Source of the DNA: Platerodrilus igneus
Taxonomy: Eukaryota; Arthropoda; Insecta; Coleoptera; Lycidae
Assembly (NCBI GenBank): GCA_036346225.1
Contig: JARFIW010001104.1
Span: 11,000,001 to 11,064,000, forward strand
Length of the DNA stretch: 64,000 bases
Direction of reading: 5' to 3'
This document shows, piece by piece, positions 931 to 63,716 of the stretch. The translations under genes and the position numbers were made by a program. The notes beneath the pieces were generated by a model. The model had not been told where the DNA came from. It did no database searches and saw only the letters and a list, made by a program, of their open reading frames with translations. Numbering within the stretch: position 1 is the first letter of the stretch; each line of letters starts with the position of its first letter.

Positions 931-1231
931 AAGGAAGATCCAGACGAGATCGACACGATACATTCGACACAAAACGAAGAACCAAAAAACGCGATTAAAA
1001 TTTTAAACGAAGCAATCGATATGAAACCCAGCCAATTTATAATAACCGAAGTTTTAAATAACCCCAATCCAGTAAAATATACAAAAGTAGATAACAAAAA
1101 GATATACCAAATTCAAATAACTAAAGATGACAATGAGGAACAAATAATTAAAATTCTAAAAGAATACACCCCGAGAAAAACGATTTTATTTTTATTTCAA
1201 CACCGAACATTTATACCAAAGATTTTCAGAA

Positions 1232-2383: not shown

Positions 2384-2456
2384 TAATAAAAAAATTAAAC
2401 AACCCCGGTATACTACCAATTAAATTAGGCAGTATGCAAAACCCAATTAACATTTT

Positions 2457-7900: not shown

Positions 7901-8422
7901 TGTTGCGATCCACTATTAGGCAACCCGGCAAACATACAAACGCCCGGGGCACAGCGTATTCTTCAGCATTCGAGAATCCTTCTACAAAGTTCTAGATAAT
8001 GAGTCATATCTTAATGCAGGGTATATATAAGGCCGCTTATGAATGTAAGAGTTAGTCTATTCTTGAATGTCTAATATAAATTATATCGTTGTAAAGTAAA
8101 CGTAGTTGAGCTTTTAGAATATATACATAAATGATATGCTGTGTCTAATGTGCATGCAGCTTGCAGTATACATAAATAAATAGAAGTGTATAAACAAATA
8201 GTTGTGTTAGTGTTGTTAATGAACCTATGGTAAAGGAGTTAATTTAAGAAGATATTAGTGCTTGTAAATTCATTAGTGTAATAGTGCTTCATTGTTAAGT
8301 GGACTGAAAACATCTATAAATAAGGCATATACTGTAAATTAGACTTGTGAACAGTGAGTAATAAAGACCATTATTATTACTTGTTTTAAATTAAAGAAAC
8401 GCGGAAGTAGTAGCCCGTTACA
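7901..8422 (+). repeat. 5' LTR of element A
   Basis: It is bounded by TGTTGCGATCC and CCCGTTACA. It holds a promoter-like TATATATAA (8022-8030) and an AATAAA polyadenylation signal (8360-8365), so U3, R and U5 can be outlined. It matches 13950-14471 except for G/T near LTR base 28 (CCCGGCAAAC versus CCCGTCAAAC). Confidence 0.95.
8022..8030 (+). promoter_or_regulatory. TATA box in LTR of element A
   Basis: TATATATAA lies about 120 bp into the LTR, upstream of an AATAAA at 8360-8365. This is the expected position for the U3 promoter of a retrotransposon. The same box is in the 3' LTR and, as GTATATATAAGACC on the minus strand, in both LTRs of element B. Confidence 0.6.
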
Positions 8423-8423
8423 C

Positions 8424-8433
8424 TGGTGTCAGG
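8424..8433 (+). other. Primer binding site (tRNA-Leu type)
   Basis: TGGTGTCAGG starts one base after the 5' LTR. TGG complements the CCA end of a tRNA, and TGGTGTCAG matches, from memory, the 3' end of tRNA-Leu. Element B has the equivalent TGGTGTCAGCC at 31919-31929 on the minus strand. Confidence 0.7.
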
Positions 8434-8497
8434 CATTTGTGGGGTATATAGTGATTAATTTAAAACACAAGTCTAAAGACATTTAAGTAGTTTATAT

Positions 8498-9780
8498 ATG
8501 CCAGTTACAAGGAGTCAAAATAAGATGGAGGCAGAAAGTTTAATGAATTTCCTTAAGGATTTTAAATCCGAAATGCAAGTGACACTTAGTGAAAATGCTG
8601 AGAAAATGGAGGAGAGGTCGGCTAAACTGGAAGTGACACTAAATGAAAAGTTTACTGAAAATGCTGCAAAAATAGATGAAAAGTTTACTGAAAACGCTGA
8701 GAAAATGGAAAGGTTAAGTGAAAATGCTGCCAAAATGGAAGAAAAGTTGAATGAAAGTACAGCCACGTTAGAACAAAGATTAATAGCAAGCTCCATTGCA
8801 TTGAAAGAAGATGTCACTGAACAGGTAAAACAGTTGAGCAAAAGTTGGACAGTAAATTGGTAAAAATGGAAGAAGATATGATGAGGCTGCAAGAACAAGT
8901 GATTTCACTAACAACACAGCCACTTGAAATACCAAGCCAAGTTGTTAATCAGAACATTCCAGAAATAAGAACCATGGAAAGAAGCGAGTCAATTCCGTCT
9001 AAATTTAAAGTAAAACCACCTACATTCGATGGTAAAACACCTTGGCCCACATATTTGAAACAATTTGAAGCTGCTGCAATAGCCAACGGTTGGTGCAACA
9101 AAGAGAAGGCTATCTCCTTAATAGTGGCCCTACGGGGGGAGGCTCTTAACATCTTACAAACGATTCCCGATCACCAGCAGAATGATTACGGCCTCTTAAC
9201 ATCAAAGCTTGAGATGAGATATGGAGATGCTCACCTTCAACAGGTTTACCACGCACAAGTTAAGAACCGCTCGCAAAAGACAAGTGAAAGCCTGCAAGAA
9301 TTCGAAGCTGACATCGCCAGATTAGTTAGATTGGCATATCCAACGGCACCAGATAGCTTCCTCGAACAACTTGCTGTACAAACATTTGTGGATGGCGTTA
9401 AAGATGGCGAAATACAGCAAGCGCTAAGATTAGCACGGCCAAAAATGTTGGATGACGCACTGGCCCATGCGCTTGAATTTGAAGCAGCTAAGCAGACATC
9501 ACACAGGATGGGTCACAAAGTTCGGTCTGCCTTAGAGGAACCTGGTCAAGCTCAGAACAGCATAGATGAAATAGTAAACCGTGTGTTTGAAAAGCGAAAA
9601 GCGGAAAGGCTGAAAAGATTACGACCGCGGAGATGGCGTCTGCGATGCTGGAGCTGCGGTAAAGTTGGTCATATGCAGAGACGCTGTACTCAACCAAAGA
9701 AAGAACCGGTTGAGTTAAAGCAGGTCAATGTAAGGGGGCGAACGTCGACAGCACAGCGTAGTGCCCGGAGATTATCATCC
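8498..9780 (+). pseudogene. gag of element A (frameshifted)
   Basis: The N-terminal ~120 residues (MPVTRSQNKMEAE...) form a repeated heptad coiled coil built from ENAEKMEERSAKLE-like units. A single A is missing from a homopolymer near 8829 relative to element B, so the frame moves to the ORF starting at 8845. That ORF carries a retrotransposon gag domain (PPTFDGKTPWPTYLKQFE, then LQEFEADIARLVRLAYP) and a CCHC zinc knuckle CWSCGKVGHMQRRC near 9647-9690. The protein would form the virus-like particle and bind element RNA. This copy cannot make it without recoding. Confidence 0.85.
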
Positions 9781-9789
9781 GTGCTGCAT

Positions 9790-10498
9790 CGTCGATGGGG
9801 AGTCTGGACAGCATTTATATCGATGGAAGAATTAATGGTAGGGTGTCCGATTACTCGTGGATACAGGAGCGACAAGGACTATTGTGAGACCAGATTTAGT
9901 TGGTCGTGGAAAAGTGCTACCTGTATCGGTGTGTCTTCGAACGGCAAGTGGTGAGAAAATTTGTACTCACGGAGAGACTGCCGTTATGTTGACAATTGGG
10001 GACAAATTAATTAATCATCGAGTGTTGGTAGCTGAAATTACAGAAGAAGTGATCTTGGGAATGGATCTCATGAGAGAATATGGGTTTCATGTAAACATGA
10101 AAGAAAATGTGCTTCGGATAGATGATGATGAGATTCCATTTCAAGGTAGGAGTAACCAGACGATGCAAGTTCGAATGATTTGCGATATGAAAATACCGGA
10201 GAAGGCGGAAATGATAGTAATGGGACGCCCGGATGGTACGCTCCGGGAAGGACAAGTATGCATGATGGAAGCAACTGAATCGGGAATGGGTCAGGAGGGA
10301 CTTCTGATTGGAAGAACGCTGGTAAAGTCTCGAAATATGGTACCAGTAAGGGTGCTGAACATTAATCCCCATACAGTGACCCTGAAGAAAGGCATGATTG
10401 TGGGAAGTTGCATTCCAGTATGTCATATTAAACGTTGTGTGGACGACACGAAAATAAACCAACCAACGGTTGCTCACAGAAATTGCTGGATATGTTGA
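9790..10498 (+). pseudogene. Aspartic protease and linker of element A
   Basis: The open frame 9857-10498 begins at MDTGATRTIV, which holds the retroviral-type aspartic protease active site DTGA. The flap-distal motif EVILGMDLMREYG follows at about residue 70. The preceding residues (GSLDSIYIDGRIN) are in another frame because of an indel just before 9857; element B has them in one frame. The frame ends WIC*, at the same point as in element B. The enzyme would cut Gag and Pol. Confidence 0.8.
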
Positions 10499-11925
10499 TA
10501 CCCTCGTGTCAAGGATTAAATGGCGATCAACTGGGCAAGGTAAAAGAACTGGTCGGACGATATCGAGGTGTGTTTGCACTGGATGATAGTGAGAAGGAAG
10601 GACGAATGTTGTGCAACACAAGATCAATACTGGAGATGCGCAACCGATAAGACAACACCCAGGCGGCTTCCTTTGGCAAAACGTAAGGAAGCTGAGCAAA
10701 TTATCACCGATATGGAAGAACAGGGAGTGATTGAACCTCGAATAGTCCATGGGCATCCCCGGTAGTGCTTGTCAAGAAAAGGACGGGTCGACAAGGTTTT
10801 GTGTGGACTACCGGCGGCTTAACAATGTGACAAAGAAAGACAGCTATCCTTTGCCCAGAATTGATGACACCTTAGATACTCTATCCGGATCTAAATGGTT
10901 TTCGACCTTGGACTTGAAAAGCGGATACTGGCAGGTAGGCTTGGAGCCAAACGATAAAGAAAAGACTGCCTTTACAATTGCAACTGGATTATGGCAGTTC
11001 AAGGTCATGCCATGTGGATTATGCAATGCTCCTGCTACTTTTGAACGATTGATGTAGTCGGTACTGCGTGGACTGTCCTGGAAGACATGTCTGGTGTACC
11101 TGGACGACGTGATAGTGTTAGGTCGGTCTTTCGAAGAACATCTTAAGAACCTAGAGGAGATATTCCAGAGATTACGGGAGGCAAACCTTACATTGAGCCC
11201 CAAGAAGTGTCACCTGTTTGGAAAAGAGGTGAAATACCTAGGACATGTCGTTTCGGAGACCGGAATAAGAGCTGACCCTGACAAAATAAAAACGGTACAA
11301 GAGTGGCCTACACCAGCAGATATACACCAACTACGCAGTTTTCTAGGATTGTGCACATATTACCGACGTTTTATACTTGAGTTTGCGAACATTGCCAAAC
11401 CGTTAACGAAATTAACCGAAGATGGACAAGAATATGATTGGAATGACGACTGCCGCAGTGCATTTGAACAACTGAAACGGCTACTAGTTACAGCACCAAT
11501 TTTGAGTTATCCACGGATGGAGGGAAAATTTGTGTTGGATACCGATGCCAGTAACACAGCTATAGGAGGCGTTCTTTCTCAAGTGCAGGACGGACAAGAA
11601 AAAGTTATTGGGTATTTCAGCAAGGTCTTGTCGCGGCCAGAAAGGAACTATTGTGTGACAAGAAGGAGCTGTTGGCCGTCGTCAAATCCGTAGAGCACTT
11701 TATAAGTACTTATACGGCCGTAAATTCCTGTTGAGAACAGACCATGCTGCACTGAAATGGTTATTGCAGTTTCGAAATCCTGAAGGGCAAGTGGCAAGGT
11801 GGATAGAGCGGCTGCAGGAATATGACTTTGATACAGAACATCGTGTAGGAACTAGCCATCGGAATGCAGACGCTCTATCAAGGAGACCTTGTCCGATGGA
11901 CTGCAATCATTGCTCCAAGATGGAA
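10435..11925 (+). pseudogene. Reverse transcriptase-RNase H of element A
   Basis: RT blocks are clear: [20 protein letters not shown] (10799 on), [10 protein letters not shown], and [11 protein letters not shown] followed by a TAG stop at 11056 where element B has GAG. YLDDVIVLGRSFEEHL (11097 on) contains the YxDD catalytic box. RNase H follows with FVLDTDASNTAIGGVLSQ and TDHAALKWLLQF, then RNADALSRRP near 11860-11886. Frames change near 10630, 10750, 11056-11094 and 11690. Intact relatives copy RNA into DNA and degrade the RNA strand. Confidence 0.85.
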
Positions 11926-13179
11926 GAGAAAATAAGTGTCATCCATAGAATGACGGTAACCGATGATACTTGGCAACTCGAAAGAATACGAGAAGACCAG
12001 GAGAATGACGCCGAATTGGGACGTATTATTGAGTGGAAAAATAGAGGACAACGGCCAGCTTGGGAAGAAATTAGTATTTTAAGTAGGAGCCTGAAGGCAT
12101 ACTGGTCACAGTGGGACTCCTTGATGATGGAAAATAGAATCTTGAAACGACGCCTGGAATTTGAAGATGGCACTGAGAGACTTCAAGTGATAGTGCCGAG
12201 AAGCAGAGTGCCGGAAGTGTTGCAGCACTTGCACGATGGTATTTCCGGAGGGCACTTTGGCGTGAAAAGAACTCTCGAAAGAGTGAGAGAAAGATTCTAT
12301 TGGGTGAACTGCAAAGAAGATGTGAAGGAGTGGTGCCGGAAATGTGAATTGTGTGCCTCTGCAAATGGCCCGGTCTCAAAACGGAAAGCCCCAATGAGAC
12401 AGTATAACGTGGGGAATCCTTTTGAAAGGGTAGCCATTGATATAGCTGGTCCGTTTCCTGAATCAGAGAAAGGAATAAATACATCTTGGTTGCAATGGAT
12501 TATTTTACCAAATGGCCGGAGGCATATGCTATACCTAACCAAGAAGCCGAGACGGTTGCAGATGTACTAGTGAGGAGTTGTTTTGTCGCTTTGGAGTTCC
12601 GTTGGAATTACACTCCGATCAAGGTCGGAACTTCGAATCAGCGTTGTTTCAAAACGTCTGCAAGCATCTTGGAATCAGGAAAACTAGAACCACGCCACTT
12701 CATCCTCAATCGGATGGAATGGTTGAAAGAATGAACAGAACGTTAGGAAAGTACCTGGCCAAAGTTGTCTCTGAACATCAACGGGACTGGGACCAATATC
12801 TACATTTGTTCCTACTGGCGTACCGATCTTCGGTACATGACAGCACAGGATACTCGCCCGCTTGCGTAATGCTAGGACGTGGTTGCGGCTACCATGTGAT
12901 CTTCAGTTTGGATTTAAACCTGGAGAAGAGATCGCCGGTGAAGATTACGTTAGTAAGCTTCGTGAAAGATCAAATAGTATTCACGAAAACGTCCGAAAGA
13001 ATATACAGGCAGCAAGCGATCAAATGAAATCACAATATGACACGAGAGCACAAGAAGGTGGTTATCAACCTGGAGATTTAGTGTGGTTGTACAATCCACA
13101 AAGAAAACGTGGATTGTCGCCAAAACTACAAAGACAATGGGAAGGGCCGTACGAAGTGTTAAAAGGATTAATGATGTAG
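11926..13179 (+). pseudogene. Integrase of element A
   Basis: The zinc domain (HLHDGISGGHFGVKRT, then CRKCELC) lies at about 12228-12360. DDE core blocks follow in broken frames: VAIDIAGPFPESEKG (12430 on), HSDQGRNFESALF (about 12613-12650) and HPQSDGMVERMNRTLG (about 12703-12750). A GPY/F module (RQWEGPYEVLKG) ends the frame at 13179 with LMM*. Element B stops at the same LMM*. Frame changes near 12475, 12575 and 12880 disable this copy. Confidence 0.85.
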
Positions 13180-13215
13180 TGTACCGGATCAGAAGATCCT
13201 CGTGGTAAACCGAAA

Positions 13216-13968
13216 GTGGTACACTTTGACCGTTTAACACCCTACACTGGCAACAACCAGGAAGACTCAAATAATGATAATGGTGTTCGGCAAGTTATTA
13301 ATCATGAGCCAAATGCAGATTTTGAGAGCTTTATGGCGGCGTATGGTGGTTCCGCTAAAGCGAGATTTGGCGTTGTTGTTGAAAACAGCAAGATCTGTTT
13401 AGAGCACCAGAAGAGTATTCCTTGCACATTGCGTAGCTCAAGATTTGGCAATGTCAAGGGGAATAGCTGTTGTTTTCAAGAAAAGTTTGGATGTGTGGAT
13501 GAATTAGTACAACAGCAGCCAACTGTAGGAAAATCTTTGGTTCTTCAAGATAAAAATCGTTATGTTTACTATCTGGTCACCAAAAATTCTTCATGGCAGA
13601 GACCTAGTTATGGACATCTATGGGAGGCTTTGCTAAATCTTAAGGCGCAGATGATGGAAAATGGAGTAACGAGACTAGCGGTGCCCAAGTTGGGCTGTGG
13701 ACTGGATCGCTTGGATTGGAGGATAGTCCGAAATATGCTAGAAGTAGTTTTCCAGGAACCAACGTCCAGGTTCTTGTTTGTTGTTATCAACCGGTTGCCT
13801 ACCAAGACCATGAAAAGAGTGTTGACTGTTACTTCCAACGACGCGGTGGATGCACCAGAGGAGATAGCTGCCGATACCGTCACCAGTCATCGAATTGGCG
13901 TCAAGATGGATTTACAGTTACGAGACGTAACGGTTTTAAAGAGGGGCAGTGTTGCGATCCACTATTAG
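13216..13968 (+). CDS. TARG1/OARD1-like macrodomain ORF of element A
   Basis: The 250-residue ORF lies between the integrase and the 3' LTR. Residues 1-12 (MVHFDRLTPYTG) look like a typical pol tail. From about residue 50 (ARFGVVVE) to 180 it matches a TARG1-class macrodomain: FGCVDELVQQQ, YVYYLVTK (catalytic-type Lys, residue 123), AVPKLGCGLDRLDW (catalytic-type Asp, residue 164), then MLEVVF. The family removes ADP-ribose from glutamate-type sites and hydrolyses O-acetyl-ADP-ribose. Compared with element B, three one-base losses in homopolymers (about 13383-13480) keep the overall frame but scramble about 38 residues, including the LAHCVAQDLAMSRGIAVVF loop, so this copy is damaged. The ORF runs past the purine tract into the LTR. 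Confidence 0.85.
   Translation: MVHFDRLTPYTGNNQEDSNNDNGVRQVINHEPNADFESFMAAYGGSAKARFGVVVENSKICLEHQKSIPCTLRSSRFGNVKGNSCCFQEKFGCVDELVQQQPTVGKSLVLQDKNRYVYYLVTKNSSWQRPSYGHLWEALLNLKAQMMENGVTRLAVPKLGCGLDRLDWRIVRNMLEVVFQEPTSRFLFVVINRLPTKTMKRVLTVTSNDAVDAPEEIAADTVTSHRIGVKMDLQLRDVTVLKRGSVAIHY
13937..13949 (+). other. Polypurine tract of element A
   Basis: AAAGAGGGGCAG directly precedes the 3' LTR start (TGTTGCG, 13950). It is the usual plus-strand DNA primer. It lies inside the macrodomain ORF frame, so the ORF overlaps the replication signal. Confidence 0.75.
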
Positions 13969-14471
13969 GCAACCCGTCAAACATACAAACGCCCGGGGCA
14001 CAGCGTATTCTTCAGCATTCGAGAATCCTTCTACAAAGTTCTAGATAATGAGTCATATCTTAATGCAGGGTATATATAAGGCCGCTTATGAATGTAAGAG
14101 TTAGTCTATTCTTGAATGTCTAATATAAATTATATCGTTGTAAAGTAAACGTAGTTGAGCTTTTAGAATATATACATAAATGATATGCTGTGTCTAATGT
14201 GCATGCAGCTTGCAGTATACATAAATAAATAGAAGTGTATAAACAAATAGTTGTGTTAGTGTTGTTAATGAACCTATGGTAAAGGAGTTAATTTAAGAAG
14301 ATATTAGTGCTTGTAAATTCATTAGTGTAATAGTGCTTCATTGTTAAGTGGACTGAAAACATCTATAAATAAGGCATATACTGTAAATTAGACTTGTGAA
14401 CAGTGAGTAATAAAGACCATTATTATTACTTGTTTTAAATTAAAGAAACGCGGAAGTAGTAGCCCGTTACA
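13950..14471 (+). repeat. 3' LTR of element A
   Basis: It is 522 bp, same ends as the 5' LTR (TGTTGCG...GTTACA). It is followed by ATAT, matching the ATAT before the 5' LTR. Confidence 0.95.
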
Positions 14472-17208: not shown

Positions 17209-20200
17209 CAATGATAATAGGGTAGTTCCGTCAGCATCTGCACTTCTTCAGGAAGCTCTGAATATCCATCCGAGGGCTTTTCACTGTTGTCACGTAAATG
17301 CACAATCCCTTTTGAGTAAATTTGACGATTTTACTAATACATTTGAAAATAGTGGCGCGCACTGTGTTGCCGTATCAGAGACCTGGTTAAAACCTCTCTG
17401 CCTGATAATTTAGTTCAATTACACGGATACCGCCTTTTCAGGAATGATCGTAAACAACAACGTGGCGGCGGTGTTGCCTTATACATAAGAGAGGGTTAAA
17501 AGCTCTAGAAATTGTCAAGTCACAAACTACTCATCGTGATAGGCCCGAATATATATGTGTTGAGATCTTATTCAAACACTGCAAAATGCTCGTTATGACA
17601 GTGTATCGCCCTCCAAATATTGGTTATTTGTCTGACATAGAAGAGATTCTTTGTGACTTTCTACCTATATATAATGTCATTATCTTGTTAGGCGACTTCA
17701 ATATAAATTTGAATGGCGACGCTTCGGATGCTCGTTACCTAAGGAACATTGCAGATATCTGCAATTTACACATTTTACCACTACAACCAACTCATCATCT
17801 TATAACTGCAGCTACTGAGGTGCACACCACTATAGATCATATTATCACCTTAAACAGGGATAAAGTTATCAACTTTGGGCAAATTCCTATTTTAGAACTC
17901 TCTAAACACGACCTAATTTACGCGTCATTTTCAGTGAAGCTGCGCAGCTTATTCCAAAATATAAGAAATTTAGGAACTTCAAAGATATGGATTTTGGCAG
18001 AGTAGTGAGTGACGCTGGCAGAATTTCTTGGAGTGATATTGACTTATTTGATGACGCAAACTGCAAACTCCATAAATTTAATCTTTTTGTTACACATCTC
18101 TTTGATTTTCATGCTCCGTACAAAACTATTCGTATCACAAAACCGAAGGCTCCCTGGCTAAATGATCAAATCAATGAAATGCGGCGAATTAGAAATGCTG
18201 CGGCATTTAGGTTTAAACGTGTTCCTACAGTTGAAAATTATAACTACTTCAAGTACCTGCGAAATAAAACCAAGCAGCTAATTAGAAACTCCAAGCTACG
18301 CTACTATTATTCGCTATCCACGAATTTAAATTCCGCTAAAACTTGGAAAGAGCTGAAGTCACTAGGAGTTGGGAAAGCGCCTGTTCGTATTCCACACAAT
18401 TTATGCCTTAATTCTCTAAATGACCATTTTAATTCTAAAAAGATCACTGATCAAGAGCGCATGGATAACTTTATTATAAGTTTATCCTCCTTAAATACTC
18501 CAATGTGCCCTAAGTTTGCTTTCCATCAAGTTACAAATGACATCGTGTATAAATCAATTCAGCGCATTAAATCAAGTGCAATAGGCGCTGACCAAATATC
18601 CAAGACAATGCTTTCACTGGTGCTTCCTCATGCTCTACAGTCTCTTGTCTCTATCATTAACCATTCATTTAGTACAAATACTTTCCCTCATCATTGGAAA
18701 CAGGCGCTTATTCATCCACTTCCTAAAAAGTCATTCCTTTATCACCATCTGACTACCGCCCAATTAGTATTCTTCCTGCCTCTCTAAATCTATTGAATAT
18801 ATTGCTTTTGATCAATTATCAAATTTTCTAAATTCAAATAAGCTATTTGACCAATTTCAATCCGGTTTTCGTAAGCACCACTCTACAACTTCGGCCTTAA
18901 TCCGCATAATCGATGATGCGAAGGAAGCCATGGACTGCAAACAGCTAACTATTATACTATTACTTGATTTCAGTTCATCTTTCAACAGTGTGAACTTCAA
19001 AATTTTACTTGCCAAGTTAAAGATGCTCAATAATTTCTCAGATGATGCTTTGCAATGGTTTGAGTCGTACTTGAGCGGTCGTCGACAGCGTGTCATTACG
19101 GAGGATGGGGCTAACTTGTCAGATTGGCTGAATTTGGAAGCTGGAGTACCACAGGGAAGTGTGCTTGGTCCTATTCTCTTTTCCTATTATATACAGGATG
19201 TTTTTAGAGTCTTGAAATTCAGTAAATATCACTGTTACGCAGATGATATACAGGTATATTCACATTTTCATCCCTACGATATTTTCCGTACTATTAATAA
19301 TCTTAACACTGATCTTGCTAGTATAAATTCGTGGGGACTGGACAACCAACTAACTATAAATCCGTTAAAATGCCAAGCAACCTTAATCGGGTCATCCAAA
19401 TTGTTGAGTAAAATCGATATTTTAACTCTTCCACACTTATATTTAAATGGCTTAGCAATTCCACTGTCTACTACAGTAAAGAATCTTGGTATAATGATCG
19501 ACTCAAATCTGTCATGGAAAGCCCACACAATGTATATATGTAAAAAGGTGTATGCTTCGTTACATAGTCTTAAGAGGGTAAAACGATTTTTACCAGTTCG
19601 TTTAAGAATACAACTTATTAGGTCGCTTATTCAACCGATTTTTGACTATGGAGATGTTTTATATCATCATTTATCTATGGACAACAGTAATCGTTTACAG
19701 CGAGTTCACAACAGTTGCATTCGATTTGTTTTTGACATTAAACGTCGTCAGCATGTTACACCATATTTCAATAAGCTCTCTTGGTTAAAATTAGTGAAAC
19801 AGCGACAGTTACATCAGGCAATAATGCTCTATAAACTCTTACATGGACTTGGACCTTCGTACTTAACCTCAAATTTCTCTTACGTTTCCACAGGACACCA
19901 TAACACACGAGATGAAAAACGACTGCTAATACCAATGCACCGTACTGAAATGTATCATTCATCGTTCTTGGTATCCGGGTCGTCTCTCTGGAACTGTATA
20001 CCCATAAATATAAGAAATTGCACAACATTACTTAAATTTAGAAAAGCATATCAGGAGTATCTACTATCTTGCAACTAAACTTTAATATGGAATGGGGAAT
20101 AGTGGGCCCAGCGTGCGTGATGTGTTTTGTACGTGTGTGTGGTGAGGGGGGGGGGTGGATGTTTGTGTAAAAATGTGCATGTAAGTGTGGTGGCGTATGT

Positions 20201-21392: not shown

Positions 21393-21530
21393 GTAGTTTT
21401 TTACACAAGGTAAGTTGATAAATACTTACGTATTGAAATTAATAAGATGAAATAATAACTTAGACTTTTTAAGTAAAGCCCAAATGATCATTTCAAATCG
21501 AGCTAGTAATTGAAAGAAGGAAAATATAAC

Positions 21531-21602
21531 GCCTTGGACAGGATTTGAACCTGCATCTCAGTTTTGCCGGAACTGTGCGCTAACCAATTACGCTACCGAG
21601 GC
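21531..21602 (-). ncRNA. tRNA-like cloverleaf, unit 1 (class I)
   Basis: On the minus strand 72 nt divide as 7+2+17+1+17+4+17+7, a canonical tRNA layout. The acceptor is GCCTCGG/CCAAGGC with one C-A mismatch, the D arm is GCGT/GCGC with GG in the loop, and the anticodon arm is CAGTT/AACTG around CCGGCAA. The T arm is GCAGG/CCTGT around TTCAAAT. The anticodon position reads GGC (Ala-type), but position 33 is C instead of the near-universal U, so it is probably not a working tRNA. Pol III A- and B-box-like sequences are present. It is part of a repeat, not a single-copy gene. Confidence 0.7.
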
Positions 21603-21934
21603 CGATGGCTTTAATTGGGAAATTTACAAATCTAAATCGTGTACAGTACCATATATAAACCTAACTTTCAATTACGTTTAGCATTTTTGTCAATCATATC
21701 TGAAATTGTCAAGTTTTTGACTTATGTTAGATATAGACAGGAAGCAACGCTCTAAATCACGGCTATAAGCCAATTATTAATATATAAATATTATAAGTAG
21801 TTTTTTACACAAGGTAAGTTGATAAATACTTACGTATTGAAATTAATAAGATGAAATAATAACTTAGACTTTTTAAGTAAAGCCCAAATGATCATTTCAA
21901 ATCGAGCTAGTAATTGAAAGAAGAAAAATATAAG

Positions 21935-22006
21935 GCCTTGGACAGGATTTGAACCTGCATCTCAGTTTTGCCGGAACTGTGCGTTAACCAATTACGCTAC
22001 CGAGGT
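21935..22006 (-). ncRNA. tRNA-like cloverleaf, unit 2 (class I)
   Basis: It has the same fold and length as unit 1, with D-arm GCGT/ACGC (a full pair where unit 1 has T-G). The outermost acceptor base is altered at 22006, exactly where the unit is joined to the next one, so the array junction cuts the end of the module. Confidence 0.6.
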
Positions 22007-22141
22007 AGTTAATTACACAAGGTAAGTTGATAAATACTATCGTACTATAGTGAATAAGATGAAATAATAACTTAGACTTTTATGCAAAGCCCAAATGATC
22101 ATTTCAAATTGAGCTAATAATTGAAATATGGAAAATATAAG

Positions 22142-22213
22142 GTCTTGGACAGGATTTGAACCTGTATCCTGGTTTTGCCGGAACCATGCGTTTACCAATT
22201 ACGCCACCGAGAC
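22142..22213 (-). ncRNA. tRNA-like cloverleaf, unit 3 (class II)
   Basis: It has the same 72-nt layout, but stem bases differ in a compensated way: acceptor GTCTCGG/CCAAGAC, D stem GCGT/ACGC, anticodon stem TGGTT/AACCA, T stem ACAGG/CCTGT. The anticodon loop CCGGCAA is unchanged. The flanking ORF on the plus strand is incidental. Confidence 0.7.
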
Positions 22214-22545
22214 CGATGACGACAATTGGGAAATTTACAAATTTAAATCGTGTACACGACGATACATCAACCTAACTTTCAATTACGTTCGGCATTTTTG
22301 TCAATCATATCTGACATTGTCAAGTTTTTGACTTATGTCAGTTATAGATAAGAAGCTACGCTCAAAATTATGGCTTTAAGCCAAGTATTAAATATATAAA
22401 AATTTTAGGTAGTTAATTACACAAGGTAAGTTGATAAATACTATCGTATTATAGTGAATAAAATGAAATAATAACTTAGACTTTTATGCAAAGCCCAAAT
22501 GATCATTTCAAATTGAGCTAATAATTGAAATATGGAAAATATAAG

Positions 22546-22617
22546 GTCTTGGACAGGACTTGAACCTGTATCCTGGTTTTGCCGGAACCATGCGTTTACC
22601 AATTACGCCACCGAGAC
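22546..22617 (-). ncRNA. tRNA-like cloverleaf, unit 4 (class II)
   Basis: The stems are identical to unit 3. One change (GGACTTGAACC for GGATTTGAACC on the plus strand) falls in the T loop/stem boundary. The surrounding ~400 bp is almost identical to unit 3, so this pair arose by a recent tandem duplication. Confidence 0.65.
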
Positions 22618-22938
22618 CGATGACGACAATTGGGAAATTTACAAATTTAAATCGTGTACACGACGATACATCAACCTAACTTTCAATTACGTTCGGCATT
22701 TTTGTCAATCATATCTGACATTGTCAAGTTTTTGACTTATATCAGTTATAGATAAGAAGCTACGCTCAAAATTATGGCTTTAAGCCAAGTATTAAATATA
22801 TAAAGATTTTAGGTAGTTAATTACACAAGGTAAGTTGATAAATACTATCGTATTATAGTGAATAAGATGAAATAATAACTTAGACTTTTATGCAAAGCCC
22901 AAATGATCATTTTAAGTTATTATTTCATCTTATTCACT

Positions 22939-25563: not shown

Positions 25564-26089
25564 TGTAGCGGGCTACTACTACCGCGTTTCTTTAATTTAA
25601 AACAAGTAATAATAATGGTCTTTATTACTCACTGTTCACAAGTTTAATTAACAGTATATGCCTTATTTATAGATGTTTTCAGTCCACTCAACAATGAAGC
25701 ACTATTACACTAATGAATTTACAAGCACTAATATCTTCTTAAACTAACTCCTTTACCATAGGTTCATTAACAACACTAGCACAACTATTTGTTTATACAC
25801 TTCTATTTATTTATGTATACTACAAGCTGCATGTACATTAGACACAGCATATCACATTTATGTAAACTTCTAAAAGCTCAAAACTACTATTACTTTAACA
25901 CGTTATAATTTATATACGACATTCTAGTATAGACTGACCCTTGCATTCATTAGCGGTCTTATATATACTCTGGATTACAAGGATGACTCATGCTCCCGTA
26001 ATTTCTAGAAGAATTCTGGAATCCTTGAGAAGGCGCTGTGCCCCGAGCGTTTGTATGTTTGACGGGTTGCCTAATAGTGGATCGCAACA
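25564..26089 (-). repeat. 3' LTR of element B
   Basis: It is 526 bp; on the minus strand it runs TGTTGCGATCC to GGGCCGCTACA-type end (plus-strand TGTAGCGGGC). The purine tract (plus-strand CTGCCCCCTCTTTAAAAC, 26088-26106) borders it. Confidence 0.95.
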
Positions 26090-26214
26090 CTGCCCCCTCT
26101 TTAAAACAGTTACGTCTCGTAACTGTAAATCCATCTTGACGCCAATTCGATGACTGGTGACGGTATCGGCAGCTATCTCCTCTGGTGCATCCACCGCGTC
26201 GTTGGAAGTAACAG

Positions 26215-26826
26215 TCAACACTCTTTTCCCGGTCTTGGTAGGCAACCGGTTGATAACAACAAACAAGAACCTGGACGTTGGTTCCTGAAAACTACTTCTA
26301 GCATATTTCGGACTATCCTCCAGTCTAAGCGATCCAGTCCACAGCCCAGCTTGGGCACCGCTAGTCTCGTTACTCCATTTTCCATCATCTGCGCCTTAAG
26401 ATTTAGCAAAGCCTCCCATAGATGTCCATAACTAGGTCTCTGCCATGAAGAATTTTTGGTGACCAGATAGTAAACATAACGATTTTTATCTTGAAGGACC
26501 AAAGATTTTCCTACAGTTGGCTGCTGTTGTACTAATTCATCCACACATCCAAACTTTTTCTTGAAAACAACAGCTATTCCCCTTGACATTGCCAAATCTT
26601 GGGCTACGCAATGTGCAAGGGAATACTCTTCTGGTGCTCTAAACAAATCTTGCTGTTTTTCAACAACAACGCCAAATCTCGCTTTAGCGGAACCACCATA
26701 CGCCGCCATAAAGCTCTCAAAATCTACATTTGGCTCATGATTAATAACTTGCCGAACACCATTATCATTATTCGAGTCTTCCTGGTTGTTGCCAGCGTAG
26801 GATGTTAAACGGTCAAAGTGTACCAC
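26215..26826 (-). CDS. TARG1/OARD1-like macrodomain ORF of element B
   Basis: The 203-codon frame has the best-preserved macrodomain in the window (about residues 50-182). In order: ARFGVVVEKQQDLF; SLAHCVAQDLAMSRGIAVVF, the loop that binds ADP-ribose in this class; KKKFGCVDEL; YVYYLVTK with Lys-124; AVPKLGCGLDRLDW with Asp-165; and MLEVVF. In human TARG1 the catalytic Lys84 and Asp125 sit in the same two motifs, also 41 apart. A one-base loss near 26289 shifts the last 20 codons. The proper continuation (26266 down) adds about 60 residues ending at the LTR. The start MVHFDRL continues the pol tail, so the domain was either fused to Pol or is now a separate ORF. Likely role: removal of ADP-ribosylation. 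Confidence 0.88.
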   Translation of the reverse strand: MVHFDRLTSYAGNNQEDSNNDNGVRQVINHEPNVDFESFMAAYGGSAKARFGVVVEKQQDLFRAPEEYSLAHCVAQDLAMSRGIAVVFKKKFGCVDELVQQQPTVGKSLVLQDKNRYVYYLVTKNSSWQRPSYGHLWEALLNLKAQMMENGVTRLAVPKLGCGLDRLDWRIVRNMLEVVFRNQRPGSCLLLSTGCLPRPGKEC

Positions 26827-26863
26827 TTTCGGTTTACCACGAGGGATCTTCTGATCCGGTACA

Positions 26864-27859
26864 CTACATCATTAATCCTTTTAACACTTCGTACGGCCCT
26901 TCCCATTGTCTTTGTAGTTTTGGCGACAATCCACGTTTTCTTTGTGGATTGTACAACCACACTAAATCTCCAGGTTGATAACCACCTTCTTGTGCTCTCG
27001 TGTCATATTGTGATTTCATTCGATCGCTTGCTGCCTGTATATTCTTTCGGACGTTTTCGTGAATACTATTTGATCTTTCACGAAGCTTACTAACGTAATC
27101 TTCACCTGCGATCTCTTCTCCAGGTTTAAATCCAAACTGAAGATCACATGGTAGCCGCAATTCACGTCCTAGCATTACGCAAGCGGGCGAGTACCCTGTG
27201 CTGTCATGTACCGAAGATCGGTACGCCAGTAGGAACAAATGCAGATATTGGTCCCAGTCTCGTTGATGTTCAGAGACAACTTTGGCCAGGTACTTCCCTA
27301 ACGTCCTGTTCATTCTTTCAACCATTCCATCCGATTGGGGATGAAGTGGCGTGGTTCTAGTCTTCCTGATTCCAAGATGCTTGCAGACATTTTGAAACAA
27401 TACTGATTCGAAGTTTCGACCTTGATCGGAGTGTAATTCAAACGGAACTCCAAAACGACAAAACAACTCCCTGACTAGTACATCTGCAACCGTCTCGGCT
27501 TCTTGGTTAGGTATAGCATATGCCTCCGGCCATTTGGTAAAATAATCCATTGCAACCAAGATGTATTTATTTCCTTTCTCTGATTCAGGAAATGGACCAG
27601 CTATATCAATGGCTACCCTCTCAAAAGGATTCCCCACGTTATACTGTCTCATTGGGGCTTTCCGTTTTGAGACCGGGCCATTTGTAGAGGCACACAATTC
27701 ACATTTCCGGCACCACTCCTTCACATCATCTTTGCAGTTCAGCCAATAGAATCTTTCTCTCACTCTCTCGAGAGTTCTTTTCACGCCAAAGTGCCCTCCG
27801 GAAATACCATCGTGCAAGTGCTGCAACACTTCCGGCACTCTGCTTCTCGGCACTATCAC
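26864..27859 (-). CDS. Integrase of element B
   Basis: The 331-residue frame holds the whole domain: HHCC zinc domain (HLHDGISGGHFGVKRT; CRKCELC), DDE core with Asp in VAIDIAGPFP, Asp in LHSDQGRNFES and Glu in HPQSDGMVERMNR, and a GPY/F module (WEGPYEVLKG) at the end. Residues and spacing of the catalytic triad look intact. The frame is preceded by an in-frame TAA (Gln to stop relative to element A) and ends LMM* as in element A. The first Met is only the next available one. Confidence 0.88.
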   Translation of the reverse strand: MIVPRSRVPEVLQHLHDGISGGHFGVKRTLERVRERFYWLNCKDDVKEWCRKCELCASTNGPVSKRKAPMRQYNVGNPFERVAIDIAGPFPESEKGNKYILVAMDYFTKWPEAYAIPNQEAETVADVLVRELFCRFGVPFELHSDQGRNFESVLFQNVCKHLGIRKTRTTPLHPQSDGMVERMNRTLGKYLAKVVSEHQRDWDQYLHLFLLAYRSSVHDSTGYSPACVMLGRELRLPCDLQFGFKPGEEIAGEDYVSKLRERSNSIHENVRKNIQAASDRMKSQYDTRAQEGGYQPGDLVWLYNPQRKRGLSPKLQRQWEGPYEVLKGLMM

Positions 27860-27979
27860 TTAAAGTCTCTCAGTGCCCTCTTCAAATTCCAGGCGTCGTT
27901 TCAAGATTCTATTTTCCATCATCAAGGAGTCCCACTGTGCCCAGTATGCCTTCAGGCTCCTACTTAAAATACTAATTTC

Positions 27980-29440
27980 TTACCAAGCTGGTCGTTGTCC
28001 TCTATTTTTCCACTCAATAATACGTCCCAATTCGGCGTCATTTTCCTGGTCTTCTCGTATTCTTTCAAGTTGCCAAGTATCATCGGTTACCGTCATTCTA
28101 TGGATGACACTTATTTTCTCTTCCATCTTGGAGCAATGATTGCAGTCCACCGGACAAGGTCTCCTTGATAGAGCGTCTGCATTCCGATGGCTAGATCTTA
28201 CACGATGTTCTGTGTCAAAGTCATATTCCTGCAGCCGCTCTATCCATCTTGCCACTTGCCCTTCAGGATTTCGAAACTGCAGTAACCATTTCAGTGCAGC
28301 ATGGTCTGTTCTCAACAGGAATTTACGGCCGTATAAGTACTTATAAAAGTGCTCTACGGATTTGACGACGGCCAACAGCTCCCTTCTTGTCACACAATAG
28401 TTCTTTTCTGGCCGCGACAAGACTTTGCTGAAATACCCAATAACTTTTTCTTGTCCGTCCTGCACTTGAGAAAGAACGCCTCCTATAGCTGTGTTACTGG
28501 CATCGGTATCCAACACAAATTTACCCTCCATCCGTGGATAACTCAAAATTGGTGCTGTAACTAGTAGCCGTTTCAGTTGTTCAAATGCTCTGTGGCAGTC
28601 GTCATTCCAATCATATTCTTGTCCATCTTCAGTTAATTTTGTTAACGGTTTGGCAATGTTCGCAAACCCAAGTATAAAACGTCGGTAATATGTGCACAAT
28701 CCTAGAAAACTGCGTAGTTGGTGTATATCTGATGGTGTAGGCGACTCTTGTACCGTTTTTATTTTGTCAGGGTCAGCTCTTATTCCGGTCTCCGAAACGA
28801 CATGTCCTAGGTATTTCACCTCTTTTCCAAATAGGTGGCACTTCTTGGGGCTTAATGTAAGGTTTGCCCCGCGTAATCTTTGGAATATCTCCTCTAGGTT
28901 CTTAAGATGTTCTTCAAAAGACCGCCCTAACACTATTACGTCGTCTAGGTACACCAGACACGTCTTCCAAGACAGTCCGCGAAGTATCGACTCCATCAAT
29001 CGTTCAAAAGTAGCAGGGGCATTGCATAATCCAAATGGCATGACCTTGAACTGCCATAATCCAGTTCCAATTGTAAAGGCAGTCTTTTCTTTATCGTTTG
29101 GCTCCAAGCCTACCTGCCAGTATCCGCTTTTCAAGTCCAAGGTCGAAAACCATTTAGATCCGGATAGAGTATCCAAGGTGTCATCAATTCTGGGCAAAGG
29201 ATAGCTGTCTTTCTTTGTCACATTGTTAAGCCGCCGGTAGTCTACACAAAACCTTGTCGACCCGTCCTTTTTCTTGACAAGCACTACCGGGGATGCCCAT
29301 GGACTATTCGAGGGTTCAATCACTCCCTGTTCTTCCATATCGGTGATAATTTGCTCAGCTTCCTTACGTTTTGCCAAAGGAAGCCGCCTGGGGTGTTGTC
29401 TTATCGGTTGCGCATCTCCAGTATTGATCTTGTGTTGCAC
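27980..29440 (-). CDS. Reverse transcriptase-RNase H of element B
   Basis: The 486-codon frame spans the RT fingers ([20 protein letters not shown]), palm ([25 protein letters not shown]), thumb (YLGHVVSETGIRAD; FLGLCTYYRRFI) and RNase H (FVLDTDASNTAIGGVLSQ; TDHAALKWLLQF; NADALSRR). Catalytic Asp residues are present. It ends at a TAA near 27980 where element A has GAA, so a single nonsense change separates it from integrase. It begins QHKINTGDAQPIRQHPRRLP after a frame jump that element A shares. Confidence 0.9.
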   Translation of the reverse strand: MQHKINTGDAQPIRQHPRRLPLAKRKEAEQIITDMEEQGVIEPSNSPWASPVVLVKKKDGSTRFCVDYRRLNNVTKKDSYPLPRIDDTLDTLSGSKWFSTLDLKSGYWQVGLEPNDKEKTAFTIGTGLWQFKVMPFGLCNAPATFERLMESILRGLSWKTCLVYLDDVIVLGRSFEEHLKNLEEIFQRLRGANLTLSPKKCHLFGKEVKYLGHVVSETGIRADPDKIKTVQESPTPSDIHQLRSFLGLCTYYRRFILGFANIAKPLTKLTEDGQEYDWNDDCHRAFEQLKRLLVTAPILSYPRMEGKFVLDTDASNTAIGGVLSQVQDGQEKVIGYFSKVLSRPEKNYCVTRRELLAVVKSVEHFYKYLYGRKFLLRTDHAALKWLLQFRNPEGQVARWIERLQEYDFDTEHRVRSSHRNADALSRRPCPVDCNHCSKMEEKISVIHRMTVTDDTWQLERIREDQENDAELGRIIEWKNRGQRPAW

Positions 29441-29616
29441 AACATTCGTCCTTCCTTCTCACTATCATCCAGTGCAAACACACCTCGATATCGTCCGACC
29501 AGTTCTTTTACCTTGCCCAGTTGATCGCCATTTAATCCTTGACACGAGGGTATCAACATATCCAGCAATTTCTGTGAGCAACCGTTGGTTGGTTTATTTT
29601 CGTGTCGTCCATACAA
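29401..29616 (-). pseudogene. Protease-RT linker of element B, offset frame
   Basis: GCSQKLLDMLIPSCQGLNGD and YRGVFALDDSEKEG are the usual pol linker before RT. They lie in a frame different from both the protease and the RT. Element A has the same offset at the same bases, so the shift predates the split of the two copies or is tolerated. Confidence 0.65.
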
Positions 29617-30257
29617 CGTTTAATATGACATACTGGAATGCAACTTCCCACAATCATGCCTTTCTTCAGGGTCACTGTATGAGGGTTAATGTTCAGCACC
29701 CTTACTGGTACCATATTTCGAGACTTTACCAGCGTTTTTCCAATCAGAAGTCCCTCCTGACCCATTCCCGATTCAGTTGCTTCCATCATGCATACTTGTC
29801 CTTCCCGGAGCGTACCATCCGGGCGTCCCATTACTATCATTTCCGCCTTCTCGGGTATTTTCATATCGCAAATCATTCGAACTTGCATCGTCTGGTTACT
29901 CCTACCTTGAAATGGAATCTCATCATCATCTATCCGAAGCACATTTTCTTTCATGTTCACATGAAACCCATATTCTCTCATGAGATCCATTCCCAAGATC
30001 ACTTCTTCTGTAATTTCAGCTACCAACACTCGATGATTAATTAACTTGTCCCCAATTGTCAACATAACGGCAGACTCTCCGTGAGTACAAATTTTCTCAC
30101 CACTTGCCGTTCGAAGACACACCGATACAGGTAGCACTTTTCCACGACCAACCAAATCTGGTCTCACAATAGTTTTTGTCGCTCCTGTATCCACGAGTAA
30201 TCGGACACCCCTACCATTAATTCTACCATCGATATAAATGCTGTCCAGACTCCCCAT
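29553..30257 (-). CDS. Aspartic protease of element B
   Basis: The 234-codon frame reads MGSLDSIYIDGRINGRGVRL then LLVDTGATKTIVRPDLVG; DTGA is the active site. EVILGMDLMREYG follows near residue 90. The remaining ~120 residues are a linker ending WIC*, as in element A. Unlike in element A, the residues ahead of DTGA are in frame. Confidence 0.85.
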   Translation of the reverse strand: MGSLDSIYIDGRINGRGVRLLVDTGATKTIVRPDLVGRGKVLPVSVCLRTASGEKICTHGESAVMLTIGDKLINHRVLVAEITEEVILGMDLMREYGFHVNMKENVLRIDDDEIPFQGRSNQTMQVRMICDMKIPEKAEMIVMGRPDGTLREGQVCMMEATESGMGQEGLLIGKTLVKSRNMVPVRVLNINPHTVTLKKGMIVGSCIPVCHIKRCMDDTKINQPTVAHRNCWIC

Positions 30258-30299
30258 CGACGATGCAGCACGGATGATAATCTCCGGGGCACTACGTTG

Positions 30300-31856
30300 T
30301 GCTGTCGACGTTCGCCCCCTTACGTCGACTTGCTTTAGTTTTCCTGCTGCTCAACCGGTTGTTTTTTTGGTTGAGTGCAGCGTCTCTGTATATGACCAAC
30401 TTCGCCGCAGTTCCAGCATCGCAGACCCCATCTCCGCGGTCGTTGTCTTTTTTTTTAGGCGTCGCCGTGGATCAATGTAGTAAGCGTAAGACTACGGATC
30501 CCAAGGTCCTGGGTTCAAATCCCGACACGGCCGACTGCTTGAAAAATGGCAGGTGAGCATTTTCACAAAATTACGCCCTCGTTCGGATGAGAGGTTAAAT
30601 GGAGGTCCCGTGTGTGAGTGTTGTCACGCACGTTAAAGATCCCTACCTTGCCTGGAACGACAAGGGTTCGGCAAAATTCTAAATTTCCAGGCAACAAAAA
30701 ACTCGCCTCCTGGCCAATGTAGTACCTTCTGGTGGAGCATTGGAAATGTAAATGAACGGTCGTTGTCTTTCAAGCTTTTCTACACGGTTGATTATTTCAT
30801 CTATGCTGTTCTGCGCTTGATCAGGTTCCTCTAAGGCAGACCGAACTTTGTGACCCATTCTGTGTGATGTCTGCTTAGCTGCTTCAAATTCAAGCGCATG
30901 AGCCAGTGCGTCATCCAACATTTTTGGCCGTGCTAGTCTTAGCGCTTGCTGTATTTCGCCATCCTTAACGCCATCCACAAATGTTTGGACAGCAAGTTGT
31001 TCGAGGAAGCTGTCTGGTGCCGTTGGGTATGCCAATCTAACTAACCTGGCAATGTCAGCTTCGAATTCTTGCAGGCTTTCACTTGTCTTTTGCGAGCGGT
31101 TCTTAACTTGTGCGTGGTAAACCTGTTGAAGGTGAGCATCTCCATATCTCATCTCAAGCTTTGATGTTAAGAGGCCGTAATCATTCTGCTGGTGATCGGG
31201 AATCATTTGTAAGATGTTAAGAGCCTCCCCCCGTAGGGCCACTATTAAGGAGATAGCCTTCTCTTTGTTGCACCAACCGTTGGCTATTGCAGCAGCTTCA
31301 AATTGTTTCAAATATGTGGCCAAGGTGTTTTACCATCGAATGTAGGTGGTTTTACTTTAAATTTAGACGGAATTGACTCGCTTCTTTCCATGGTTCTTAT
31401 TTCTGGAATGTTCTGATTAACAACTTGGCTTGGCAATTCAAGTGGTCGCGTTGTTAGTGAAATCACTTGTTTTTGCAGCCTCATCACATCTTCTTCCATT
31501 TTTACCAATTTATTATCCAACTTTTGCTCAACTGTTTTTACCTGTTCAGTGAAATCCTCTTTCAATGCAATGGAACTTTCCATTAATCTTTGTTCTAACG
31601 TGGCTGTACTTTCATTCAACTTTTCTTCCATTTTGGCAGCATTTTCACTTAACCTTTCCATTTTCTCAGCATTTTCAGTAAACTTTTCATTTAGTGTCAC
31701 TTCCAGTTTAGCCGACCTCTCCTCCATTTTCTCAGCATTTTCACTAAGTGTCAATTCTAGTTTAGCCGACCTTTCCTCCATACCGGATTTAAAATCCTTG
31801 AGGAAATTCATTACAGTTTCTGCCTCGATCTTACTCTGATTTCTTGTAACTGGCAT
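30300..31856 (-). pseudogene. gag of element B, split by a SINE
   Basis: It starts MPVTRNQSKIEAE at 31856, with a shorter coiled-coil repeat than element A. One C is missing near 31320 (GGCC for GGCCC), shifting the frame into the segment 30679-31323 that carries the gag core (LQEFEADIARLVRLAYP). A SINE at 30451-30756 separates that core from the CCHC zinc knuckle (CWNCGEVGHIQRRC, near 30375-30420). Gag of this copy is therefore doubly broken. Confidence 0.85.
30451..30756 (+). mobile_element. tRNA-derived SINE nested in element B
   Basis: This is the fullest SINE copy in the window. A tRNA-like head (GTCGCCGTGGATCAATGTAG; B-box GGGTTCAAATCCC) is followed by the GCTTGAAAAATGGC block, CGTTCGGATGAGAGG, the central CACGCACGTTAAAGATCCC, and an AT-rich tail ending GGAAATGTAAATGAA. 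A perfect 14-bp target duplication, CGGTCGTTGTCTTT, lies at 30437-30450 and 30757-30770. Element B is itself young, so this SINE moved recently. Confidence 0.92.
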
Positions 31857-31918
31857 ATATAAACTACTTAAATGTCTTTAGACTTGTGTTTTAAATTAAT
31901 CACTATATACCCCACACA

Positions 31919-31929
31919 GGCTGACACCA
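31919..31929 (-). other. Primer binding site of element B
   Basis: On the minus strand TGGTGTCAGCC starts one base inside the 5' LTR edge. It resembles the tRNA-Leu 3' end complement, as in element A. Confidence 0.65.
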
Positions 31930-31930
31930 G

Positions 31931-32456
31931 TGTAGTGGGCTACTACTACCGCGTTTCTTTAATTTAAAACAAGTAATAATAATGGTCTTTATTACTCACT
32001 GTTCACAAGTCTAATTAACAGTATATGCCTTATTTATAGATGTTTTCAGTCCACTCAACAATGAAGCACTATTACACTAATGAATTTACAAGCACTAATA
32101 TCTTCTTAAACTAACTCCTTTACCATAGGTTCATTAACAACACTAGCACAACTATTTGTTTATACACTTCTATTTATTTATGTATACTACAAGCTGCATG
32201 TACATTAGACACAGCATATCACATTTATGTAAACTTCTAAAAGCTCAAAACTACTATTACTTTAACACGTTATAATTTATATACGACATTCTAGTATAGA
32301 CTGACCCTTGCATTCATTAGCGGTCTTATATATACTCTGGATTACAAGGATGACTCATGCTCCCGTAATTTCTAGAAGAATTCTGGAATCCTTGAGAAGG
32401 CGCTGTGCCCCGAGCGTTTGTATGTTTGACGGGTTGCCTAATAGTGGATCGCAACA
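31931..32456 (-). repeat. 5' LTR of element B
   Basis: It is 526 bp and matches 25564-26089 except for C/T near its 3' end (GTAGC versus GTAGT) and one C/T in CACAAGTCTAATT. It is followed by GTAC, the target duplication. Confidence 0.95.
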
Positions 32457-63442: not shown

Positions 63443-63716
63443 TTATAAGTAGTTTTTTACACAAGGTAAGTTGATAAATACTTACGTATTGAAATTAATA
63501 AGATGAAATAATAACTTAGACTTTTAAGTAAAGCCCAAATGATCATTTCAAATCGAGCTAGTAATTGAAAGAAGGAAAATATAAGGCCTTGGACAGGATT
63601 TGAACCTGCATCTCAGTTTTGCCGGAACTGTGCGTTAGCCAATTACGCTACCGAGGCAGATGGCTATATTTGGGCTTTACTTAAAAGTCTAAGTTATTAT
63701 TACATCTTATTAATTG

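What the first reader, a model, noticed from the sequence alone, without database searches (positions are those of the whole stretch)
26215..26826. Retrotransposon-borne TARG1-type macrodomain (element B)
Seen: between integrase and the 3' LTR, element B has an ORF with the TARG1/OARD1 motif series (SLAHCVAQDLAMSRGIAV, YYLVTK, GCGLDRLDW). The Lys and Asp are 41 residues apart. Known: human TARG1 uses K84 and D125 in the same motifs, at the same spacing, to remove ADP-ribose from acidic residues. Inference: the element captured a host-type ADP-ribosyl hydrolase, which could undo PARP-type host ADP-ribosylation of element RNA or proteins. Viral macrodomains do this in other systems, but I know of no established Ty3/gypsy family defined by one.
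Basis: partly seen in the sequence, partly recalled or inferred. Interest (0 to 1): 0.92.

Follow-up and report, generated by a model that had tools for sequence, protein, structure and literature searches.

The report
Beetle retrotransposons carrying a host de-ADP-ribosylase
A lineage of beetle jumping genes carries, fused to the tail of its integrase, an insect-type enzyme domain of the kind that strips ADP-ribose tags from proteins and nucleic acids, followed by a zinc finger, which suggests that the element deals with a cellular marking system used in DNA repair and antiviral defence.

The parts
25564..32456 (-). element B, Ty3/gypsy LTR retrotransposon, 6893 bp
   Evidence: 526-bp LTRs with 2 mismatches and 4-bp target duplication gtac
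31931..32456 (-). 5' LTR of element B
25564..26089 (-). 3' LTR of element B
31308..31877 (-). first ORF, gag-like by position, coiled-coil-like by sequence
   Evidence: only matches under the Pfam cut-offs
30679..31329 (-). gag capsid-like ORF
   Evidence: Ty3_capsid, under its cut-off, E 0.0093
29553..30350 (-). aspartic protease
   Evidence: gag-asp_proteas E 3.8e-11
27980..29458 (-). reverse transcriptase and RNase H
   Evidence: RVT_1 E 7.1e-39, RT_RNaseH E 4.9e-34
26864..27859 (-). integrase (H2C2, rve, GPY tail); frame breaks in the tail
   Evidence: Integrase_H2C2 E 1.8e-21, rve E 2.7e-16
26215..26868 (-). ORF with end of integrase tail, linker and TARG1-type macrodomain
26284..26664 (-). 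macrodomain stretch (ORF residues 69-195)
26455..26457 (-). codon of catalytic Lys (TARG1 K84)
   Evidence: alignment, residue 138
26332..26334 (-). codon of catalytic Asp (TARG1 D125)
   Evidence: alignment, residue 179
25959..26291 (-). continuation in another frame: last strand of the macrodomain and CCCH zinc finger, running into the 3' LTR
   Evidence: PF00642 21.7 bits, cut-off 20.5
26157..26213 (-). CCCH zinc finger C-x7-C-x5-C-x3-H
   Evidence: same finger in relatives
26090..26102 (-). polypurine tract directly before the 3' LTR; tract and LTR start also spell the RRGQC-like residues near the C-terminus
7901..14471 (+). element A, second copy, 6571 bp, TSD atat, LTRs 522 bp with 1 mismatch
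13180..13968 (+). macrodomain-bearing ORF of element A, frame-broken
   Evidence: Macro E 0.0017, under its cut-off

Best explanation
A beetle Ty3/gypsy lineage captured an insect TARG1/OARD1 gene once, as a C-terminal extension of Pol between the integrase tail and the polypurine tract; the extension also holds a CCCH zinc finger, and the lineage has kept both while spreading. Most likely mechanism: the domain is made with Gag-Pol, packaged with integrase, reverse transcriptase and element RNA, and works as an ADP-ribosyl-hydrolase on the element's own nucleoprotein. It removes ADP-ribose that host ADP-ribosyltransferases put on acidic residues of integrase or nearby proteins, or on phosphate ends of element RNA and cDNA; the CCCH finger holds it on nucleic acid. 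Shown: domain identity, the fusion, one clade in the macrodomain and in the integrase tree, signs of constraint, persistence of the catalytic pair in most cluster representatives. Inferred: packaging, catalysis, substrate, benefit to the element, origin of the CCCH.
Against: No activity was measured. In 4 of 28 cluster representatives Lys or Asp is changed or in a deleted stretch, and all four still have the CCCH. Of 38 full-length integrase-picked copies in the own genome 32 carry a frameshift in the macrodomain, with 5 frameshift sites each shared by three or more copies, so subfamilies spread without an intact macrodomain, perhaps helped in trans. The copies used for dN/dS were picked by protein similarity (integrase or macrodomain), which lowers dN, and the shared-variant counts are small. 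Antiviral PARPs as known in vertebrates are not established in beetles (recalled).
Confidence: 0.52

Rival explanations
1. One reading: the macrodomain stays on integrase and binds ADP-ribose or PAR on chromatin, for example at breaks or active sites, and so directs or helps integration. It stands where chromoviruses carry their chromodomain.
For: Position at the integrase C-terminus, the hallmark place of the chromodomain (abstract of PMC3605345). Some relatives keep the domain and CCCH without the catalytic pair (P0125 K>R, D>E). [quoted passage not shown]
Against: 24 of 28 cluster representatives keep the hydrolase pair, which a pure reader would not need. No insertion-site preference was measured.
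Confidence: 0.27
2. Silencing breaker: the hydrolase removes ADP-ribose from chromatin repressors of retroelements and so eases transcription of the element, rather than protecting its own nucleoprotein.
For: In mammals SIRT6 mono-ADP-ribosylates KAP1 to silence L1 (passage of PMC4695847).
Against: KAP1-type silencing is a vertebrate system (recalled); nothing here ties the domain to chromatin repressors.
Confidence: 0.1
3. Passenger: the captured domain has no role and is kept by chance.
For: Most integrase-picked copies in this genome have a frameshifted macrodomain (32 of 38).
Against: dN/dS 0.21 and shared-variant ratio 0.14; macrodomain DNA in 40 of 40 integrase-picked copies; co-occurrence with one integrase clade in several beetle families.
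Confidence: 0.07
4. Artefact: a host OARD1 exon or pseudogene lying next to an element by chance.
For: The host has OARD1-like exon regions.
Against: Two copies in the window, many in the genome (150 of 150 scored places), fused proteins in other beetles, host exons separate in sequence and tree.
Confidence: 0.01

Closest known systems
Human TARG1/OARD1/C6orf130, ALC1-like class macrodomain hydrolase
   Different: here fused behind a retrotransposon integrase and before a CCCH finger; activity untested; the loop reads MSRGIA where human TARG1 reads MGAGIA
[quoted passage not shown] 2009, as told in PMC4977317)
   Same: reverse-transcribing element with a captured macrodomain
   Different: retroviruses of fish, told of as additional open reading frames; here Ty3/gypsy, beetle, Pol C-terminal fusion. 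The 2009 paper was not held, so its macrodomain class was not compared
Chromoviruses (Ty3/gypsy with chromodomain)
   Same: extra domain at the integrase C-terminus
   Different: the domain is a TARG1-type macrodomain plus CCCH; no chromodomain in the Pfam scans
Macrodomains of positive-strand RNA viruses (alphavirus nsP3, coronavirus)
   Same: macrodomain within a polyprotein; reported to remove ADP-ribose (PMC7050489, passages)
Kadipiro virus VP8
   Same: best BFVD match of the model, 40% identity over 176 columns
   Different: a double-stranded RNA virus without integrase (recalled); not followed up

Membership tests
TARG1/OARD1 macrodomain | macro fold closest to TARG1 | tested here: met
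TARG1/OARD1 macrodomain | catalytic Lys84 and Asp125 equivalents | tested here: met
   K138 and D179 in the window; both in 24 of 28 family cluster representatives
TARG1/OARD1 macrodomain | phylogenetic place among OARD1 proteins | tested here: met
   element clade inside a 41-row group, 99/95, whose named host members are all insects; the smaller, midpoint-rooted tree does not resolve the donor
TARG1/OARD1 macrodomain | hydrolysis of ADP-ribosyl esters | not testable with these tools
   needs purified protein
Ty3/gypsy LTR retrotransposon | LTRs, TSD, polypurine tract | tested here: met
Ty3/gypsy LTR retrotransposon | domain order protease, RT, RNase H, integrase | tested here: met
   ORF order with Pfam hits
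Ty3/gypsy LTR retrotransposon | primer binding site matching a host tRNA | tested here: inconclusive
   tggtgtcag one base after the 5' LTR; likeness to a tRNA-Leu 3' end is recalled, no tRNA-Leu was compared
Ty3/gypsy LTR retrotransposon | placement in a named clade by RT phylogeny | not tested
   no reference set of named elements at hand
Chromovirus | chromodomain at the integrase C-terminus | tested here: not met
   Pfam scans of the window ORFs and of nine window or relative proteins list no chromodomain up to E 0.1
Macrodomain-bearing fish endogenous retroviruses | retroviral pol/env relationship | not tested
   no sequence of those elements at hand; the paper was not held

The most novel reading that the evidence does not exclude
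The macrodomain with CCCH is an ADP-ribose-guided integration module standing where a chromodomain stands in chromoviruses: integrase is steered to, or licensed at, PARP-marked chromatin or breaks, with hydrolysis as the release step. As far as I recall no integrase guided by ADP-ribose is known.
Probability: 0.2. Interest if true: 0.92.

Novelty: new variant of a known kind. Interest (0 to 1): 0.74.

Why it matters
It ties a retrotransposon lineage to ADP-ribosylation in insects, where antiviral or anti-transposon ADP-ribosylation is hardly explored (recalled). One capture of an insect OARD1 domain, found in several beetle families with signs of constraint, implies that ADP-ribose marks matter for the life cycle of this element. 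It also gives a natural series (versions with and without the catalytic pair, same place in Pol) in which eraser and reader roles can be told apart at the bench.

Tried and rejected
Rejected: chance or host-exon artefact; separate gene between integrase and LTR (relatives are continuous); bacterial origin (the element clade lies in a group with insect proteins; no named bacterial OARD1 was in that tree, so this rests on nesting only); assembly error as the cause of all the frame breaks (five sites are each shared by three or more copies). A programmed frameshift was considered and is not needed, since some copies read through in one frame.

Led nowhere: viral-contig scan with P0013, no relative; Basta 2009 not held; one search read loci in the wrong orientation and is replaced; the model of P0013 was not used for a fold search; the intact count (4 of 38) came from a flawed length test and was recounted with the same number; the '*' at Lys for 10 copies is a one-base gap there, not a stop. 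Results that weaken the reading: catalytic change or loss in 4 of 28 cluster representatives, frameshifts in 32 of 38 integrase-picked copies. The integrase query was window B's own ORF with its broken tail, so that sample favours copies like B. In one search a stand-alone protein, P0110, is next to the element clade (98/77); it is not.

Rows dropped before counts: 8 partial proteins; 19 vertebrate or amphioxus near-duplicates of 115 cores for the tree (96 used); 70 of 121 sequences too short in the integrase for the tree (51 used; only 16 of the 86 macrodomain-bearing proteins, plus the window); 10 of 50 pieces for the macrodomain and 32 of 50 for the integrase, where the boundary motifs were not found; 2 of 40 partial. 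Only 120 of 3162 and 120 of 2132 hits were listed, so restriction to beetles is not shown.

Full report

Surroundings. Element B is 25564-32456: 526-bp LTRs with 2 mismatches, TSD gtac, polypurine tract aaagagggggcag abutting the 3' LTR, and protease, RT-RNase H and integrase ORFs in Ty3/gypsy order. Element A (7901-14471, +) is a second copy: LTRs 522 bp with 1 mismatch, TSD atat. Over the spans compared, A and B differ at 216 positions with 30 gap events; 21 of the 30 are single bases, 18 of them missing in A, and two are the ends of the spans. Both are broken in the Pol tail. Behind the macrodomain of B, in another frame (25959-26291), follow the last strand of the fold and a CCCH zinc finger, CYFQRRGGCTRGDSCRYRH, PF00642 21.7 bits against a cut-off of 20.5. 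That frame runs through the polypurine tract into the LTR, so the RRGQC-like residues near the end of many relatives are spelled by the DNA of tract and LTR start (inference).

Relatives. The first protein search gave 12 hits; a profile search gave 3162, of which 120 are listed; a search with the Harmonia axyridis protein P0016 gave 2132, of which 120 are listed. Of those 120, 86 carry the macrodomain by my profile and 34 do not. Named species with element-type proteins: Harmonia, Diabrotica, Gonioctena, Callosobruchus, Aromia, Molorchus, Exocentrus, Pyrocoelia (integrase tail and macrodomain) and Aquatica (partial proteins): nine species, all beetles; the other rows are unnamed records. P0123, P0124 and P0126 run from RNase H or RT through integrase and macrodomain to the CCCH in one protein; P0127 (Callosobruchus) ends at the start of the CCCH. 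At 80% identity the 103 element rows with a macrodomain fall into 29 clusters. In their representatives, leaving out one truncated row, Lys is kept in 26 of 28, Asp in 25 of 28, both in 24 of 28; the CCCH is found in 20 of 22 with a long enough tail, the two without being P0020 and P0007. The losses are P0125 (K>R, D>E), P0128 (K>R), P0062 and P0133 (Asp stretch deleted); one Aromia member, P0152, has D>G. Of the 34 integrase relatives without the macrodomain the HxNRL motif was found in 22, and 18 of these end 5-22 residues after it, the others after 27, 49, 68 and 209. So the extension probably lies between the old end of Pol and the polypurine tract.

Origin. In a tree of 96 macrodomains the 16 element rows and P0056, itself an element protein with CCCH, form one clade (100/98) inside a 41-row group (99/95) whose named host members are insects: Drosophila, fleas, Hermetia, cockroach and beetles. 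In an integrase tree of 51 rows the 17 macrodomain-bearing ones lie in one clade of 21 (100/99); the four others in it end 11-49 residues after the motif, so their elements cannot be scored, and P0188, the outermost, is on a 1236-base contig. Two host-type OARD1 exon regions in the own genome (contigs C549 and C739; the latter with one TGA) group with the firefly Photinus and other beetle host proteins, not with the elements; the window's host is thus presumably a beetle (inference). So: one capture, from an insect, older than this species. A beetle donor is suggested but not resolved (84/81 and 83/73; not seen, which is midpoint-rooted).

In its own genome. The assembly is 2.71 Gb; 150 of 150 scored places match the macro ORF at E 2e-120 or better, out of 15,293 first-look candidates; 6 of 150 lie in open frames of 1000 aa or more, the longest 1462. 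Of 50 fetched pieces, 22 read integrase tail or core, macrodomain and CCCH in one frame by motif (20 of the 50 were picked mainly for long frames, and one is the window's own copy). To avoid choosing by the macrodomain, I searched with the integrase (70,078 candidates, 121 scored) and fetched the DNA downstream of every third row: macrodomain DNA is present in 40 of 40, full length in 38. Of the 38, 32 have a frameshift, 3 an in-frame stop (one has both), 4 neither; five frameshift sites are each shared by three or more copies. In the reverse check, of 29 full-length macro-picked copies 12 have an unbroken integrase segment; of 9 copies picked by host OARD1 likeness 9 have an unbroken macrodomain and 5 an unbroken integrase segment. 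Hence defective subfamilies spread beside unbroken copies; A and B are of the broken sort.

Selection. Pooled dN/dS (Nei-Gojobori) for the macrodomain is 0.19 (0.10-0.38; 40 copies) and 0.21 (0.11-0.38) in the 38 integrase-picked copies; for an integrase segment 0.11 (0.06-0.20; 18 copies). In the integrase-picked set, macrodomain variants shared by three or more copies (8 N, 16 S) have an N/S ratio per site of 0.14, private ones 0.56; the integrase gives 0.07 and 0.35 in macro-picked copies. The contrast is what one expects if the protein is constrained while elements multiply and free to decay after insertion. All samples were chosen by some protein similarity, which depresses dN.

How it works. 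TARG1 removes ADP-ribose from acidic residues, O-acyl-ADP-ribose and phosphate ends of nucleic acids, and binds RNA (passages of PMC7050489 and PMC8053099). Placed behind integrase with a CCCH finger, the domain should travel with the reverse-transcribing particle (inference). I take an eraser acting on the element's own RNA, cDNA or integrase as most likely (0.52), a reader or tether for integration as second (0.27), a silencing breaker third (0.10). The catalytic losses in four clusters fit the second for those lineages.

Known or new. Macrodomains in RNA-virus polyproteins are well known (PMC7050489, passages); a review tells of fish epsilon-like retroviruses with macro domain ORFs (PMC4977317, passage; the source paper was not read). 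Best viral structural match: Kadipiro virus VP8, 40% identity. Chromoviruses set the precedent for an extra domain at the integrase C-terminus (PMC3605345, abstract). The paper searches listed no Ty3/gypsy element with a macrodomain; only 15 of 205, 25 of 37, 20 of 301, 8 of 52 and 12 of 146 papers were listed. Of these papers I saw the listings, except for passages of PMC4977317 and PMC4695847 and the abstract of PMC3605345. The library lacks most subscription journals, and repeat databases were not searched. Public annotations already call some of these proteins 'C3H1-type' or 'Macro domain-containing'. I rate it a new variant of a known kind.

Noticed in passing
window 1160-3482 (+): Another LTR-type element with integrase and an envelope-like ORF matching Baculo_F, E 4.4e-24: errantivirus-like.
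   Followed up: no
window 21530-22912: Tandem arrays with 207- and 404-bp periods (21797-22912) around four tRNA-Ala-like genes found by ARAGORN at 21530-22618; a fifth lies at 63585-63657. Perhaps tRNA-derived repeats.
   Followed up: no
window 17454-20078 (+) and 57507-59716 (-): Two non-LTR elements; RVT_1 in 18768-20078 and 57507-58511, a sub-threshold endonuclease match in 17454-18005.
   Followed up: no
L063-L102: Frame breaks shared by many copies of the family: defective subfamilies that still multiply, presumably helped in trans.
   Followed up: partly
P0125, P0133 (Diabrotica virgifera), P0062, P0128: Element macrodomains with catalytic Lys and/or Asp changed or missing that keep the CCCH.
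   Followed up: partly
G000 contigs C549:4625235-4625549 and C739:292940-293269: Two host-type OARD1 exon regions in the window's genome, the second with a TGA.
   Followed up: partly
P0023, P0035, P0043, P0070, P0074: Insect or insect-like host OARD1 proteins with a second, weak macro-like match that lacks the motif pattern of the first; those read (P0023, P0035, P0043, P0074) are long, three of them with a low-complexity N-terminus.
   Followed up: no
BFVD entry A0A8E0KJF2: Kadipiro virus VP8 has a fold match to this TARG1-type model at 40% identity, perhaps another viral capture.
   Followed up: no
window 26086-26102: The RRGQC-like residues near the C-terminus of many relatives are encoded by the polypurine tract and LTR start, so part of this conservation is for DNA, not protein.
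   Followed up: partly
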